In this document: one piece after another, positions 13,577-18,757 of the stretch | Layout of the letters: each line of letters begins with the position of its first letter | Numbering within the stretch: the stretch's first letter is position 1 | Origin: Janthinobacterium sp. | Lineage (GTDB): Bacteria > Pseudomonadota > Gammaproteobacteria > Burkholderiales > Burkholderiaceae_D | Length of the DNA stretch: 64,000 bases | Assembly (NCBI GenBank): GCA_003133225.1 | Contig: PKWL01000148.1 | Coordinates: 1-64,000 of the forward strand | Reading direction: 5' to 3' | Made by a program: the position numbers and the translations under genes | Notes under the pieces: generated by a model | Database searches by the model: none | The model's input: only the letters and a program-made list of their open reading frames with translations | Told to the model about the DNA's origin: nothing

Positions 13577-15583
13577 TCAAGATAGTTTGGGCGGGGCCGC
13601 CGGCAGCGCGAATGTGAAGCGGGTGCCGCCGCCCGGGTTGGCGCTGTAATTGAGCGTTCCGCCATGAAATTCTATGGCGGTGCGGCAAATGTTAAGGCCC
13701 ATGCCCATGCCCTCGGCCTTGGTCGAAAAAAACGGCGAGAACAGGCGCTCGGCCACTTCCTGCGCGACGCCGTGGCCTTGATCGATGACGCTGATGGCCA
13801 CTTGCGCTTGCGCCGCGTCGAACTGCGCCACCAGGCGCAAGATGCGGCGCTCGGGCACGTTCTCCTGCATCGCTTCAATGGCGTTGCGGGTCAAGTTGAG
13901 AAGGACTTGTTCGATCATCACACGGTCGGCCCGCACTGGCGGCAGGCCGGGCGGGATGCTGGTCTGCACTACCACATAAAATGCCCGCGCTTGCAGTTCC
14001 ATCAGGGCGCGAATGCCGTCGATCAGGGCCTGCACCGACACGTCTTGGCGTTCCGGTTCGCGTTTCTTGACGAATTCGTGCACGCTGCGGATGATTTCGC
14101 CGGCGCGCTGGGCCTGAGCGCTGGCCTGTTCCAGCGCCGGTTTCAGCATTGCGACGTCGACCGGCTGCTTGGCGCCGGCGGCGCGCCCGAGCACGTTCAA
14201 GGCGCCGGTGGTGTAGCTGGCGATGGCCGCCAGTGGCTGATTGAGTTCATGCGCCAGCATCGAAGCGATCTCGCCCATCGTCGCCAAGCGGGCCCCCGAC
14301 TGCAGTTTCTCTTGCTGCTGGTGATTGAGTTCCTCGACCCGTTTGCGGTCCGAGATATCGAGAATGGAGCCCATCCAGCCTGTTTGTTTGCCGTCGCTGT
14401 CGACCAATGGCGCCTCAAAAATGAGGATCGGAACACGGGTGCCGTCGGCGCGCTGGAAGATCGTCTCGACCTGTGGCGTGACGGTCCCGGCCAGCACGCC
14501 GGCGAAGCGCTGCTGATATTCGGCCATCACTTCCGGCGCCCAGTACGGCATGGGCGGCAGCTTGCCCAGCAGTTCCTCCGGTGCATAGCCGACGATCTGG
14601 CAAAAGGCCGGGTTGACATAAGTGACACGCCCTTCCAGATCGCGTGCGCGCAGGCCCGTCACCAGGGAATTTTCCATCGCCGTGCGAAACAACATTTGCT
14701 GGCGCAACGCATCTTCAGCTGCCAGGCGGCGCGAAATGTGGCGCCACAGCGCGACCAGACTCCATAACAAGCCAAAGGAGAGCAGTATCACGGAGCCAAC
14801 CAGCAAATTGGGCAACAGGCGCGGTTCGCTCCTGATGCTGTCGGTGACCAAGGTGAGCGAAGCGCCGGGCAGCTCGAGTGCCCGTTTGTGGGTATACACG
14901 CCGTGTCCGGGACCGCCCGCGGCGCGCCGGGCCAGCAGCACGTCGTCGCCATCGGCCAAGGTGATCTGATTGTCCTGGGCGAACCACCAGGGCACCATGT
15001 CGTCGAGCAGGGCGCTAACTTGATAGGTGGCAACGAGGCTGCCAATGTAACGGTCGCGCCGAAACAACGGCACATGGTAATCCATCAAGATGGCGCCGCG
15101 TGCCACGCCTTGATCGTCGGCTTGGGCGGCCGGTTGACTGTACTGCGGATTGCCGCTCTTGCGCGCGGCCTCGGCCGCCGCCGCTGACGGCGCCGAAAAG
15201 GGGGGCGGGTGGCGCGCCGGGTCGCTCGAGGCCACCACGCGTCCCCGTGCATCGACCCGTACCACGCGCTGCAGCTCACGCCCGTTCTTGAGCATCTGGG
15301 ACAGGCGTTCTTGCAGCATGGCGCCAGACAGGCGCTCACTGCTGATTTCATCACCCAGCAGGTGCAAGCTTTCCTCGTTGCGCGCCAGCTGAAAGCGGAT
15401 GGTCTGCTCGACCCACAGCGTGTCGGCAATCAACTGCTCCTGGCGCTCATTGCTTTCCATCTGGCGTGCCTGCCATGGCAACCAAAGCAAGATCGCCAGA
15501 AAGAACAGTACCAGCATCGCCGGCATGAGCCAGCGCCAAGGGCTAGACAGTTGCAAGCGCAAGAAGGAGAGCGGATTTCTCAT
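13577..15583 (-). CDS. PAS sensor histidine kinase (DctS/DctB-like)
   Basis: A 668-residue membrane histidine kinase. The start is the ATG at 15583 (MRNPLSFLRLQLSS) because AAGGAACG sits just before it; a TTG at 15619 would add 12 residues derived from the adjacent IS end. Two membrane segments (about 20-42 and 268-290) bracket a periplasmic sensor domain of the type seen in dicarboxylate sensors. A PAS domain (about 315-430), HisKA with H-box MLAHELNQPLAA (about 450) and HATPase (NLTRNAIEAM, DQGHGVA, GMGMGLNICR) follow. Its upstream promoter region has been replaced by the right end of an IS200/IS605-type element whose tnpB points into this gene. Ligand is unknown. Confidence 0.92.
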   Translation of the reverse strand: MRNPLSFLRLQLSSPWRWLMPAMLVLFFLAILLWLPWQARQMESNERQEQLIADTLWVEQTIRFQLARNEESLHLLGDEISSERLSGAMLQERLSQMLKNGRELQRVVRVDARGRVVASSDPARHPPPFSAPSAAAAEAARKSGNPQYSQPAAQADDQGVARGAILMDYHVPLFRRDRYIGSLVATYQVSALLDDMVPWWFAQDNQITLADGDDVLLARRAAGGPGHGVYTHKRALELPGASLTLVTDSIRSEPRLLPNLLVGSVILLSFGLLWSLVALWRHISRRLAAEDALRQQMLFRTAMENSLVTGLRARDLEGRVTYVNPAFCQIVGYAPEELLGKLPPMPYWAPEVMAEYQQRFAGVLAGTVTPQVETIFQRADGTRVPILIFEAPLVDSDGKQTGWMGSILDISDRKRVEELNHQQQEKLQSGARLATMGEIASMLAHELNQPLAAIASYTTGALNVLGRAAGAKQPVDVAMLKPALEQASAQAQRAGEIIRSVHEFVKKREPERQDVSVQALIDGIRALMELQARAFYVVVQTSIPPGLPPVRADRVMIEQVLLNLTRNAIEAMQENVPERRILRLVAQFDAAQAQVAISVIDQGHGVAQEVAERLFSPFFSTKAEGMGMGLNICRTAIEFHGGTLNYSANPGGGTRFTFALPAAPPKLS

Positions 15584-15599
15584 CGTTCCTTTTGACCCA

Positions 15600-15625
15600 C
15601 TCCCCGGACTGAAGTCCAAGGATTC
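15600..15625 (-). ncRNA. Putative 3' end of the TnpB omega RNA / IS right-end hairpin
   Basis: Downstream of the tnpB stop, the palindrome GGACT-GA-AGTCC (15606-15617), flanked on the minus strand by CCTT and CCGGGG, forms the right-end stem-loop. In studied IS605 elements this region is the scaffold end of the guide RNA, and the flanking host sequence becomes the guide. Here that flank would start near 15590 and run across the kinase ribosome-binding site and start codon. Inference from family knowledge; no transcript evidence. Confidence 0.45.
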
Positions 15626-17152
15626 TCACAGCGTGCCACAGGACTCTTCGCTTTTGACAAGCGACCTCGCCCTGCGCTCTGACTGCTCTAGTGTGCGAAT
15701 CGCTCTGACGCCCTCAAGGGGGCGTGTGGACACCAGAGGTGTCCAGCTTGCAGCTTTTACCAGACTGGATGGCGCACGCTCTAGTAGCGGGTACGCAACC
15801 GCCCAAACGTTTTGCGCCTGGGATGCATCCAATCTATCGGCTTGAACGAATAACGCCAGCCACGCGCTGTATAGATCGCGCTGCACGGCCTGACCTGAAT
15901 CATCGCGCAGCACGTGCCAGCGGAGCGAAAGTGGCTTCTTTTTGAAGTTCCTTTGCGTATGGTCGTACTGGCTCAGCTTATATCGGCCGGCGTTAAATTC
16001 GGTGAGTGAACCGCCAGCGTTTCCGGCTTTGCGATCCACCTTATTCATGAACATGGCTGGAGCCGTTGCCTTCATGCGGCGGCCCCACCTTTTTTGCCAT
16101 GCCACTTTGCTTAATTTTTCTGTCTTGATGGCGTTGCCAAAGTCACGCAGTACGATGTTCGATAACCGTCCATGCGCGCGATCCCGGCGCTTTGCCATTA
16201 CCCGTTCCCGCTCGGCGAGACAGGTACGCAATTGTTGATAACGCTGCGTATAAACCGTTTGCCGTTGGCCACGCTTCCAGGTGCCATCGGCATTGAAGCA
16301 GTGCGGATTGGTTGCGCGCCGCGAGCGATCCAATGCCCGTTGCAGCACACGCTTGGCGGCAAGATCTTCTTTAATTTCCGGAAGAAACGAGACCAATACG
16401 GCACGCTCAGGCGAAACGATTGCGGCAGTCGATGGGCCAAGATCGATGCCGACCTCTTGCTGCTTCACTTCAAAACGTTGCTTCGGATCGCCTTCGCACA
16501 CCAATTGCACGAACAGCTTCCAGCCGCCCTTGATTCTTCGGCGCAGCAGGCGCACATATTTGATCTTGGACGACAGCGCGTGCGCTTCGACGCCCTGCTT
16601 GTCGCACTTGTCAAAGATGGGACGCAACACCAGGCGCCGGTCGCGACGTTTGCCGCCCCATCCGATGTGATCGTCATTCCATTGCAATGGAGAGGTTGGG
16701 CCTTTGCCTTCAATGGAGGCAATCTCGCCACGGCGCTTGAAGCGGGGCCGACCACGCAGGCCAGTCGAATACTTGTGGCATGCGTCGAATGCGCGAGAAG
16801 CCAAGGTCTGCGCAGTATGCGAATCGATCAGGCCATCGAGATAGCCCGATGCGCGGATATGCTTTGCCACCACCTCATGCGCGGCGAATTCTGAGAACCG
16901 GTATTCCGTGCGCAGGGCGGCGAACAGGGCGTTGCGTGGAGCGCGATCGGCCAGTTCTTTCTTTGGCATTTTACAAGCGACGCCAAAACGTGGATCGGCG
17001 CGCATGGCATCGAGCCGGCCAAGCATGTCCTGCACTACCGCGTTGTACGGGAAATGCGCCACATCGAAACGCTTCACAACGGCGTGCAACTGCATGCGAT
17101 TAACGCGCAATGGCATTTCGTGAATAAACGTCGGCGTGGACTTTTTAGTCAT
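15626..17152 (-). CDS. tnpB: TnpB-like RNA-guided nuclease of IS605 type, zinc finger lost
   Basis: A 508-residue OrfB/TnpB homologue. The RuvC-like residues can be placed: D237 in VGIDLGPSTA, E345 in AIKTEKLSK and D426 in QAVQRDLYSAWLA. The region between E345 and D426, which in ordinary TnpB holds a CxxC...CxxC zinc finger, has no cysteine at all. The N-terminal half is longer than in compact TnpBs (about 400 aa) and contains a basic GLRGRPRFKRRGE motif (about 131-143). The frame is undamaged. Known TnpBs cut DNA matching the element flank, guided by an RNA from the element's 3' end; activity here is inference. The neighbouring TnpA appears dead. Confidence 0.85.
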   Translation of the reverse strand: MTKKSTPTFIHEMPLRVNRMQLHAVVKRFDVAHFPYNAVVQDMLGRLDAMRADPRFGVACKMPKKELADRAPRNALFAALRTEYRFSEFAAHEVVAKHIRASGYLDGLIDSHTAQTLASRAFDACHKYSTGLRGRPRFKRRGEIASIEGKGPTSPLQWNDDHIGWGGKRRDRRLVLRPIFDKCDKQGVEAHALSSKIKYVRLLRRRIKGGWKLFVQLVCEGDPKQRFEVKQQEVGIDLGPSTAAIVSPERAVLVSFLPEIKEDLAAKRVLQRALDRSRRATNPHCFNADGTWKRGQRQTVYTQRYQQLRTCLAERERVMAKRRDRAHGRLSNIVLRDFGNAIKTEKLSKVAWQKRWGRRMKATAPAMFMNKVDRKAGNAGGSLTEFNAGRYKLSQYDHTQRNFKKKPLSLRWHVLRDDSGQAVQRDLYSAWLALFVQADRLDASQAQNVWAVAYPLLERAPSSLVKAASWTPLVSTRPLEGVRAIRTLEQSERRARSLVKSEESCGTL

Positions 17153-17188
17153 GATTAATTATATGCTAACTGATAGTATAGTTGACCT

Positions 17189-17606
17189 GTGGGCGACAAA
17201 CACGACTTAAGACAAGGCACAGTTTTTTTTTGCATTGCATGTGCATTTGATCTTTGTCATAAAATACCGCAAAAAAGTATTCGATGGCGCCGCAATTGAT
17301 GATCGACTCACGAAACACTTTGAGCGCGTGGCGGGTGACCTTGGCGCTACGGGAGTCGAAACCAATGGCGAGGCTGACCATGTGCATTTGCTGGTCGAAT
17401 ACCCGCCCAATATAGTTAGTCCGTATCCTCGCTGGTGCGTAGCTTGAAGGGCGTCGAGTCGCATGCTACGGCAAGAGCGACCTGATATCGCACAGCACTA
17501 TGGGAAGGACATGCTCTGGAGTCCATCGTATGTTGCTGCAAGCTGCGGTGGTGCTCCTCTTTCCATCATCAAACAGGTTGTCGAACAACAGCAACGGCCG
17601 CTCTAA
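17189..17606 (+). pseudogene. tnpA: Decayed IS200/IS605 TnpA (Y1 transposase)
   Basis: Pieces of a Y1 transposase can be read in order but not in one frame: GDKHDLRQGT (from GTG 17189), a shift in the T-run near 17230, then LHVHLIFVIKYRKKVFD and the HUH motif DHVHLLVEYPP (17235-17415), a shift to SLVRSLKGV (about 17423-17455), then back to RMLRQERPDIAQHY...IIKQVVEQQQRPL ending at TAA 17604. The two central shifts (about +2 and -2) compensate but leave a TGA at 17445. The nucleophilic Tyr expected in IIKQYVEQQ is Val (GTT at 17577). This copy should not transpose itself. Confidence 0.85.
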
Positions 17607-17770
17607 CCTACCAAAAACCGCGCCTTATATCCCCGCGCAAATGCGTCGGCTTCGCCTTTGTGCCGCTACGCGGCAGGCGCACTTGGACGGGGCTTTACGG
17701 CGCATCGGGTAAAGATTACACAAATAAATGAATCTAGAATAATAATGGACTTTCGCCGTTGGGAGGCCTC

Positions 17771-18757
17771 ATGAAATGCAAATTGCTGGCGCTGGCGCTG
17801 TGCCTTGCCGTCTGCGCGGGCGCCTGCGCGCAAGCGCCTATCGTCATCAAATTTAGCCACGTGGTCGCGGCCAACACGCCCAAAGGCCAGGCCGCGCAAC
17901 GCTTCAAAGAGCTTGCCGAGAAGGCCACCAACGGCCGCGTCAAAATTGAAGTTTATGCCAACAGCCAGTTGTACAAGGATACGGATGAACTCGAAGCGCT
18001 GCAACTGGGCGCCGTGCAAATGCTGGCGCCCTCGTTGGCCAAGTTCGGCCCGCTCGGCTTGAAGGACTTCGAAGCCTTCGACCTGCCGTATATTTTTCCC
18101 AGCAAGACGGCGCTATACAAGGTCGCCGACGGCGAGATCGGCAGGAAACTGTTAAACGAGCTCGAGTCTAAAGGCATCATCGGCCTAGCCTACTGGGACA
18201 ATGGCTTCAAGGTCATGTCGGCTAACAAGCCGCTCTACACCCCGGCCGATTTTAAAGGCTTGAAGATGCGCGTCCAGTCCTCCAAGGTGCTGGAGGTGCA
18301 AATGCGCGCCTTGGGCGCAATCCCGCAAGTGCTGCCCTTTTCCGCCGTCTACCAGGCATTGCTAACGGGCGTGGTCGACGGCACGGAAAACACACCGTCG
18401 AATATGTATACGCAAAATATGCAGGAAGTGCAAAAATACCTGACCCTGTCCAACCACGGGTATCTCGGTTATGCCGTCATCGTCAACCGGAAATTCTGGG
18501 ATGGCCTGCCGGGCGACATCCGGCACGCACTGGAGCAGGCGATGAAGGAAGCGACCCGGTTCGAAAGGGCGCTGGCGCAGCAAGACAATGACTTGGCGCT
18601 AGAGGCGATCAGGAAAAGCGGCAAGACCCGGATCTATAGCTTGAGTGCGCCAGAGCAGGCGGCATGGCGGCGGGCCCTCATTCCCGTTCAAAAACAGATG
18701 GAAGGACGGATAGGCAAAGAGCTTATCGGCGCGATCAACCAGGCGGGCGCGAGGTGA
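17771..18757 (+). CDS. dctP: TRAP transporter substrate-binding protein DctP
   Basis: Periplasmic solute receptor of a TRAP transporter, 328 residues from the ATG at 17771, which has GGGAGG six bases upstream. The signal peptide is MKCKLLALALCLAVCAGACA. Family motifs include IKFSHVVAANTPKG near the mature start, the Arg-containing ligand-binding strand LKMRVQSSKVLEVQM (about 175-189), and GVVDGTENTPSNMYTQ (about 205-220), which is typical of DctP for C4-dicarboxylates. No dctQ or dctM membrane subunits follow: the next gene is ogt about 550 bp away. The gene was probably divergent from the kinase/regulator pair before the IS element inserted between them. Confidence 0.93.
   Translation: MKCKLLALALCLAVCAGACAQAPIVIKFSHVVAANTPKGQAAQRFKELAEKATNGRVKIEVYANSQLYKDTDELEALQLGAVQMLAPSLAKFGPLGLKDFEAFDLPYIFPSKTALYKVADGEIGRKLLNELESKGIIGLAYWDNGFKVMSANKPLYTPADFKGLKMRVQSSKVLEVQMRALGAIPQVLPFSAVYQALLTGVVDGTENTPSNMYTQNMQEVQKYLTLSNHGYLGYAVIVNRKFWDGLPGDIRHALEQAMKEATRFERALAQQDNDLALEAIRKSGKTRIYSLSAPEQAAWRRALIPVQKQMEGRIGKELIGAINQAGAR

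What the first reader, a model, noticed from the sequence alone, without database searches (positions are those of the whole stretch)
15626..17606. TnpB with intact RuvC residues but no zinc finger, beside a TnpA that cannot transpose
TnpB keeps Asp237, Glu345 and Asp426, yet the segment between Glu345 and Asp426, normally holding a four-Cys zinc finger, contains no cysteine. Meanwhile tnpA shows at least three frameshifts (two compensating, leaving a TGA at 17445) and Val in place of the nucleophilic Tyr. An intact TnpB outliving its transposase suggests selection to keep the nuclease or a helper role, or a very recent loss. Either is worth testing, as is the diversity of zinc-less TnpBs.
Basis: partly seen in the sequence, partly recalled or inferred. 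Interest (0 to 1): 0.75.

Follow-up and report, generated by a model that had tools for sequence, protein, structure and literature searches.

The report
Zinc-free TnpB in a crippled transposon
A small bacterial jumping gene here has lost its own jumping enzyme but kept an apparently intact RNA-guided DNA cutter, and that cutter belongs to a widespread group in which the zinc-binding finger usual in such enzymes seems to have been replaced by a metal-free version several separate times.

Summary
TnpB (15626-17152, minus strand, 508 aa) keeps RuvC D237/E345/D426 and has no Cys between E345 and D426. The adjacent tnpA is a frameshifted remnant (TGA at 17445, Val for the catalytic Tyr). The element runs about 15592-17713, with TTTAC at the left end and a covarying omega-RNA-like right end.

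The finger is replaced, and not only here. Of 142 unique family sequences (the window's included), 70 keep at least 4 Cys, 5 keep 3 and 67 keep 0-2; 141 keep D-E-D. On trees built without the finger columns the Zn-less state needs at least 5 changes. 48 of the 67 share SQ[YF][DN]Hx4[YF]x[KRP]K. AlphaFold2 models the segment confidently; the best fold match is ISDra2 TnpB (Z 21.6).

"Cannot transpose" holds only in cis. A second full copy at another site shares two tnpA frameshifts, so the tnpA-dead lineage probably moved afterwards; an intact tnpA of the same element lies on another contig. Between the two full copies tnpB is under purifying selection (dN/dS 0.28, no indels), weakest on the window's branch.

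Best reading: a trans-mobilised IS200/IS605 copy carrying a functional zinc-independent TnpB. Cleavage is inferred. New variant of a known kind.

The parts
15592..17713 (-). whole IS200/IS605-type element, TTTAC included (left end at 17713, right end at 15592, in tnpB orientation)
   Evidence: homology with C52 and with L030 breaks off at these two points
15626..17152 (-). tnpB, 508 aa, RuvC D237/E345/D426 intact, Cys-less TNB segment
15875..15976 (-). Zn-less TNB segment, residues 393-426 (L, then SQYDHTQRNFKKKPLSLRWHVLRDDSGQAVQRD)
   Evidence: AF2 pLDDT 93-96 in the blocks covering 391-420; residues 392-425 are 85% identical to L030 against 78% over residues 1-470
15592..15750 (-). predicted omega-RNA scaffold and right-end hairpins, overlapping about the last 41 codons of tnpB
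   Evidence: RNAalifold: 40 pairs, 11 with two-sided changes in 6 sequences; controls; no Rfam match in 15500-17800
15570..15591 (-). predicted guide: host flank abutting the right end; it covers the ATG (15581-15583) of the sensor-kinase gene
   Evidence: flank differs between copies; only match to TTTAC+16 bases in the own genome, up to 3 mismatches, is this junction, with the mismatches in the TTTAC part
17229..17591 (+). tnpA (Y1/HUH transposase) remnant, frameshifted, TGA at 17445, Val for the catalytic Tyr
17606..17713 (.). left-end region; TTTAC (GTAAA on +, 17709-17713) is the presumed target site/TAM
   Evidence: TTTAC in C32, C52, C101, C100 and L030; TTTGC in C135; not kept in the C111 fragment

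Best explanation
This is a non-autonomous copy of an IS200/IS605-type element. It keeps both ends, an omega-RNA and a TnpB nuclease whose TNB domain folds without zinc. Its own TnpA is dead, and it has been moved in trans by TnpA from sister copies such as the one on C135. TnpB presumably binds its 3'-terminal omega-RNA, takes as guide the host flank abutting the right end (here the start of a sensor-kinase gene), and cuts the empty TTTAC-flanked site left by excision, so that the copy is restored or kept. It should not cut its own junction, where the TAM is replaced by the right end. In this TnpB subfamily the C4 finger between RuvC-II and RuvC-III has been replaced several times by a Cys-less segment, often [YF][DN]Hx4[YF]xKKxLSxRW, with D-E-D kept. 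Shown by computation: element ends, copies, lesions, purifying selection between the copies, RNA covariation, Cys-less lineages, a confident predicted fold. Inferred: expression, RNA binding, zinc-free cleavage, mobilisation in trans.
For: Fold: AF2 mean pLDDT 91.4; best VIA-align rows are ISDra2 TnpB 8exa (Z 21.6, 326 aligned, 3.2 A, model 6-440) and 8h1j (Z 20.9). Relatives 39-41% identical with a C4 finger exist; of 10 Zn-bearing members scanned, 6 pass the NCBIfam guided_TnpB cut-off. Finger: 67 of 142 unique sequences have 0-2 Cys, 70 have at least 4, 5 have 3; D-E-D in 141 of 142, the other (L132) truncated. Repeated change: 6-7 changes on 82 rows; 5 changes, all forced by starred branches, and 0% of 200 bootstrap trees with a single origin on 51 rows. 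Selection: dN/dS 0.28 between C32 and C52 (22.5 S, 20.5 N), binomial p 3e-5 to 1e-4; 0 indels in tnpB against 3 in the tnpA remnant (Fisher p 0.008). Trans-mobilisation: shared +5/-2 tnpA lesions, different flanks at both ends, intact C135 tnpA with HVHLL and KQYVEQQ. omega-RNA. Self-protection.
Against: No activity data of any kind. Polarised on L030, the C32 branch alone shows weak, non-significant constraint (12 N, 8 S, ratio ~0.48, p 0.085); C52 carries most of the signal (7 N, 10 S, p 0.002), so the window copy may be starting to decay. In codons 392-426 C32 and C52 differ by 4 non-synonymous and 1 synonymous changes, and the TNB segment is less alike between them (31 of 34) than the protein as a whole (455 of 470). 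Gene conversion could spread tnpA lesions without transposition. The query has no Pfam TNB or OrfB match and is under the NCBIfam cut-off (54 against 100 bits). One RNA measure is only modest: further pair types 24 against 20.3, reached by 25 of 500 shuffles. The trees cannot tell loss from regain.
Confidence: 0.7

Rival explanations
1. The Zn-less TnpB keeps D-E-D but no longer cuts; it works as an RNA-guided binder, for example repressing the kinase gene whose start codon the guide covers (TldR-like use).
For: The predicted guide spans the start codon of the kinase gene. TNB domains of Cas12 enzymes help load DNA into RuvC (PMC10097598, passages), so changing the domain could weaken cutting; the same passage says the TnpB TNB lies far from the heteroduplex end, which argues for tolerance.
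Against: D-E-D is kept in 141 of 142 sequences, 66 of 67 Zn-less ones included, hard to explain if cutting is not selected. The guide differs at each insertion, and the only own-genome match found is the junction without a TAM. The element is absent from the same site in 9 of 9 same-genus loci examined.
Confidence: 0.1
2. tnpB is a passenger in early decay: the copy is young, tnpB is open by luck, and there is no current selection on it.
For: The C32 branch has 12 N and 8 S changes, not significantly below neutral (p 0.085). tnpB fragments exist on C135, C61 and C100.
Against: Over both branches the N/S split is well below neutral (p 3e-5 to 1e-4), with no indel or stop in 1527 bp of either full copy while the tnpA remnant shows three indels between the same copies.
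Confidence: 0.18
3. The segment still binds metal through other residues (for example Asp397/His398 with His413 and an Asp at 417-418).
For: His398 and His413 occur in the query clade. Cas12m2 uses an HCCC finger (PMC10442227, passages), so a non-Cys ligand occurs in a TNB domain.
Against: In the large all-Zn-less clade RWH is mostly RWN, and three rows have YNP instead of YNH (L118, L119, L148), leaving no His pair; the cyanobacterial rows L021 and L027 have a different Cys-less segment.
Confidence: 0.12
4. The Zn-less segments came from one source and were swapped between TnpB lineages by recombination, rather than arising by many losses.
For: Four branches carry the strict SQ[YF][DN]Hx4[YF]x[KRP]K motif (the large clade, the query clade, the L036/L040 clade, L028) and L115 nearly so, while the cyanobacterial pair differs.
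Against: The KKxLSxRW part is shared with Zn-bearing members, so only a few residues need to converge. No recombination test was run, and the segment is too short for its own tree.
Confidence: 0.2

Closest known systems
ISDra2 TnpB (PDB 8exa, 8h1j, 8bf8)
   Same: Predicted fold over residues 5-441 (Z 18.6-21.6), D-E-D RuvC with an inserted TNB domain, omega-RNA-like 3' end.
   Different: ISDra2 has a CCCC zinc finger at C331/C334/C351/C354 and ends at residue 408 (PMC10097598, passages); here no Cys and 508 aa. 16-17% identity.
C4-bearing members of the same subfamily (L042 Halorhodospira, L035/L037/L038 delta-proteobacterial MAGs, L017 Acidithiobacillus pLAtc1)
   Same: 39-41% identity, same length class, same KKxLSxRW-like TNB core.
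   Different: They keep a compact CxC...CxC finger; the window protein does not.
L030 element (Sulfuritalea MAG) and L031 (Azohydromonas australica)
   Same: L030: same element from end to end at 74% DNA identity; TnpB 76% (L030) and 69% (L031) identical, both Zn-less, with right-end RNA that covaries.
   Different: L030 has a full-length tnpA; none was seen near L031.
Non-autonomous TnpB-only elements (IS1341 type)
   Same: TnpB with element ends and no working own TnpA, which PMC3627910 suggests may be non-autonomous derivatives (passages).
   Different: Here tnpA is present but broken, and an intact tnpA of the same element is found in the same genome.

Membership tests
TnpB (IS200/IS605 RNA-guided endonuclease family) | RuvC D-E-D triad in order | tested here: met
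   D237/E345/D426; kept in 141 of 142 family sequences
TnpB (IS200/IS605 RNA-guided endonuclease family) | TnpB fold (WED/REC, RuvC, TNB) | tested here: met
   predicted model only: pLDDT 91.4; 8exa Z 21.6 over 326 residues, model 6-440
TnpB (IS200/IS605 RNA-guided endonuclease family) | Homology by sequence to accepted TnpBs | tested here: met
   NF040570 matched by 80 of 80 members of A3 at E<=0.001. Curated cut-off (100 bits): query 54, 0 of 10 Zn-less members pass, 6 of 10 Zn-bearing pass
TnpB (IS200/IS605 RNA-guided endonuclease family) | Element ends, Y1 TnpA partner, omega-RNA-like right end | tested here: met
   ends, Y1_Tnp remnant, covarying right-end RNA
TnpB (IS200/IS605 RNA-guided endonuclease family) | omega-RNA-guided DNA cleavage | not testable with these tools
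   needs biochemistry
TnpB/Fanzor C4-finger signature of PMC3627910 | C4 zinc finger between RuvC-II and RuvC-III | tested here: not met
   no Cys in residues 346-425; no PF07282 match. Not filed under this signature; PMC10711439 says only that 'many' TnpBs have the finger
TldR (nuclease-dead TnpB regulators) | Inactivated RuvC triad | tested here: not met
   triad intact. That TldRs lack the triad is recalled; a TldR paper was seen only in a listing
Autonomous IS200/IS605 element | Intact Y1 transposase in cis | tested here: not met
   frameshifts, TGA, Val for Tyr

The most novel reading that the evidence does not exclude
A large TnpB subfamily has turned the zinc-dependent TNB finger into a metal-free segment at least five separate times, largely with the same recurring motif, and these proteins remain active RNA-guided nucleases: zinc-independent relatives of the ancestors of Cas12. 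They are under-detected, since none of 10 Zn-less members scanned reaches the NCBIfam TnpB cut-off or matches the Pfam TNB profile.
Probability: 0.5. Interest if true: 0.65.

Novelty: new variant of a known kind. Interest (0 to 1): 0.5.

Why it matters
The C4 finger has served as a signature for TnpB and Fanzor proteins (PMC3627910; regular expressions in PMC10711439; passages), so Zn-less nucleases are easily missed: 0 of 10 scanned reach the NCBIfam guided_TnpB cut-off and 0 of 10 match Pfam's TNB profile, against 6 and 9 of 10 Zn-bearing members, and several relatives are annotated only as hypothetical. If they cut, zinc in the TNB domain is dispensable, and natural pairs about 40% identical, with and without zinc, can test what the domain does. 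The locus is also a natural case of a tnpB under selection in copies whose own tnpA is dead, with an intact sister tnpA in the same genome.

Tried and rejected
Misread finger or alignment error: rejected, since the Cys-less segment recurs in L030 and L031 and across separate branches. Single origin of the Zn-less state: not favoured by either tree; loss and regain cannot be told apart. The tree has long branches (canonE3, L170, L168, L022, L028), so one search was run without them; no AU test was run. Link between Zn loss and tnpA loss: none seen. Second target for the guide: none in the own genome with up to 3 mismatches over TTTAC plus 16 bases, apart from the junction. Known RNA family: none at E up to 1 in 15500-17800. 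Solved-structure match by sequence: none at E up to 1. Single-protein searches hit only the own genome among 195 genomes of the family sample and 398 of the phylum sample; the viral scan with P0001 alone found nothing; alignment-based scans did find relatives.

Rows: of 24 plasmid and 8 phage records with hits, 13 and 1 were fetched. The genome scan kept the best 80 of 531 confirmed relatives, itself a capped list. In one search seven loci were dropped for short coverage (L032, L107, L144, L164, L169, L172, L173) and a skip list of fifteen was used (fourteen own-genome loci that repeat the window copy, hold pieces or hold tnpA, and L120, a copy of L025); 153 proteins became 142 after removing identical ones, P0001 and L002 included. 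A2 holds 103 of the 110 representatives, A3 80. One search used 81 representatives plus one canonical TnpB; one search used 51 of those 82. In one search, 141 loci were counted: 49 full tnpA, 20 part, 68 none, 4 cut by a contig end. Searches scanned 10 Zn-less and 10 Zn-bearing members chosen by me across branches.

Literature: no description of Zn-less TnpBs was seen in the listings (open-licence library; one search was on another question; not all matching papers were listed) or in the passages read. A 2023 survey of TnpB diversity is recalled and was not searched for by title or read, so priority is not claimed. Papers seen: PMC10097598, PMC10711439, PMC11423790, PMC10442227, PMC9956272 and PMC3627910 as passages; PMC10278001 as section 13 and passages; the rest as listings.

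Full report
What is there. TnpB lies on the minus strand at 15626-17152 (508 aa, one open frame). A Y1 transposase remnant lies divergently at 17229-17591. Homology with the C52 copy and with L030 stops at 15592 and 17713, with unrelated sequence beyond, so the element is about 2.1 kb. The left end reads TTTAC in C32, C52, C101, C100 and L030; C135 has TTTGC and the C111 fragment does not keep it. The right end finishes ...GTGGGTCAA in C32, C52, L030 and L032, with small variants in C135 and L031, and abuts a different flank in each. A Y1 gene, hairpin ends, a short 5' motif and a variable 3' flank fit an IS200/IS605 element.

Copies in the genome. A second full copy lies on C52, its TnpB 96% identical. 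C135 holds an intact tnpA beside a tnpB with a large internal deletion. Fragments lie on C61, C100, C101 and C111. C32 and C52 share the +5 and -2 lesions in tnpA, the C111 fragment shares the +5, and C32 and C52 have different flanks on both sides. The simplest reading is that their ancestor had already lost tnpA and moved afterwards, hence with TnpA from elsewhere; C135 is a candidate. Gene conversion is an alternative I cannot exclude: the Tyr-to-Val codon is shared by C32 and C101 but not by C52. In the same genus the kinase and dctP-like genes lie next to each other without the element in 9 of 9 loci examined.

Selection on tnpB. Between C32 and C52, tnpB shows 22.5 synonymous and 20.5 non-synonymous changes, dN/dS 0.28, below neutral (p 3e-5 to 1e-4). 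There are no indels in tnpB, 3 in the tnpA remnant and 1 in the left end between the same copies (tnpB against tnpA, Fisher p 0.008). The tnpA remnant differs at 5.3% of sites, near the synonymous level of tnpB (6.1%). Against this, most of the constraint is on the C52 branch; the C32 branch alone is not significantly below neutral (12 N, 8 S; p 0.085), and codons 392-426 show 4 non-synonymous and 1 synonymous differences. Against L030 the ratio is 0.14.

The finger. Relatives came from plasmids (24 records, 13 fetched), phages (8 records, 1 fetched), genome contigs (80 kept of 531 in a capped list) and viral contigs (65). Of 142 unique sequences, 70 have at least 4 Cys in the finger, 5 have 3, and 67 have 0-2, of which 59 have none. 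D-E-D is kept in 141; the other, L132, is cut short. Zn-bearing members have compact CxC or CxxC pairs. Zn-less members keep a KKxLSxRW-like core, and 48 of 67 match SQ[YF][DN]Hx4[YF]x[KRP]K; the cyanobacterial L021 and L027 differ. The 3-Cys rows (L086, L091, L093, L097, L104) may be intermediates.

How often. On a tree of 82 rows with the finger columns left out, the Zn-less label needs 7 changes, 6 forced by starred branches (6 if the outgroup is not counted and 3-Cys rows count as Zn-bearing); that tree has long branches. A careful tree of 51 rows without them needs 5, all forced; bootstrap range 5-6, none of 200 bootstrap trees with a single origin. A canonical TnpB from Geobacillus phage E3 has the four Cys, so repeated loss is the likelier direction, but the trees cannot show direction. 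The recurring motif could also reflect swapping of a short segment.

Detection. Of 10 Zn-less members, none reaches the NCBIfam guided_TnpB cut-off (54-98 bits against 100) and none matches Pfam's TNB profile. Of 10 Zn-bearing members, 6 reach the cut-off, the other 4 score 92-98, and 9 match the TNB profile.

Structure. AF2 gives mean pLDDT 91.4 for the window protein, 93-96 in the blocks covering 391-420, and 91.2 for the C4 relative L042. Both match ISDra2 TnpB best (8exa: Z 21.6, 3.2 A, 326 aligned; and Z 20.9, 3.4 A, 325 aligned). The Zn-less segment is therefore predicted to fold as a TNB insert without metal. Coordinates were not on hand, so the packing that replaces zinc is not described.

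omega-RNA. Six right ends (C32, C52, C135, L030, L031, L032) share a predicted 40-pair structure with 11 pairs changed on both sides. The covariation score is 0.303 against 0.178 in shuffles (0 of 500 as high) and at most 0.13 in slid versions; further pair types are less clear (25 of 500 shuffles as high). Three of the six are near-copies, and the structure was derived from the same rows, so the support is less than the numbers suggest. The scaffold overlaps the end of tnpB, and a terminal hairpin lies close to the guide, as found for most TnpBs surveyed in PMC10278001 (section 13).

How it most likely works. TnpB with its omega-RNA would cut the TTTAC-flanked empty site made by excision; its own junction lacks the TAM. 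TnpA supplied in trans moves the element. The Cys-less TNB would do what the zinc finger does elsewhere. These functional steps are inference.

Known or new. The protein belongs with TnpB by homology, predicted fold, triad and element context, but fails the published C4 signature (PMC3627910) and the Pfam TNB profile. I saw no description of Zn-less TnpBs in the searches made (open-licence papers only), which is no proof that none exists. I rate it a new variant of a known kind.

Noticed in passing
15584-15591 and 17714-17780: In same-genus relatives the kinase-dctP intergenic region carries a TTGTGG...CCACA palindrome (strict pattern in 7 of 9 loci, near-variants in the other 2). It was not found beside the insertion here, so a regulatory site may have been lost.
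   Followed up: partly
15581-15592: tnpB and the right end lie on the same strand as the sensor-kinase gene (13577-15583), whose probable ATG starts 8 bases past the right end, so read-through could now drive the kinase.
   Followed up: no
window 17577-17579; L013: The C101 fragment shares the Tyr-to-Val codon with the window copy but not the +5/-2 lesions, while C52 has the lesions but keeps Tyr: a sign of recombination or gene conversion among copies.
   Followed up: no
L025: Geobacillus phage E3 carries a long Zn-less TnpB beside an annotated tnpA and, close by, a canonical C4 TnpB.
   Followed up: no
L028 (Vibrio breoganii plasmid) and L022 (Mycobacterium avium plasmid): Divergent members on long branches, one Zn-less and one Zn-bearing, each with an annotated divergent tnpA.
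   Followed up: no
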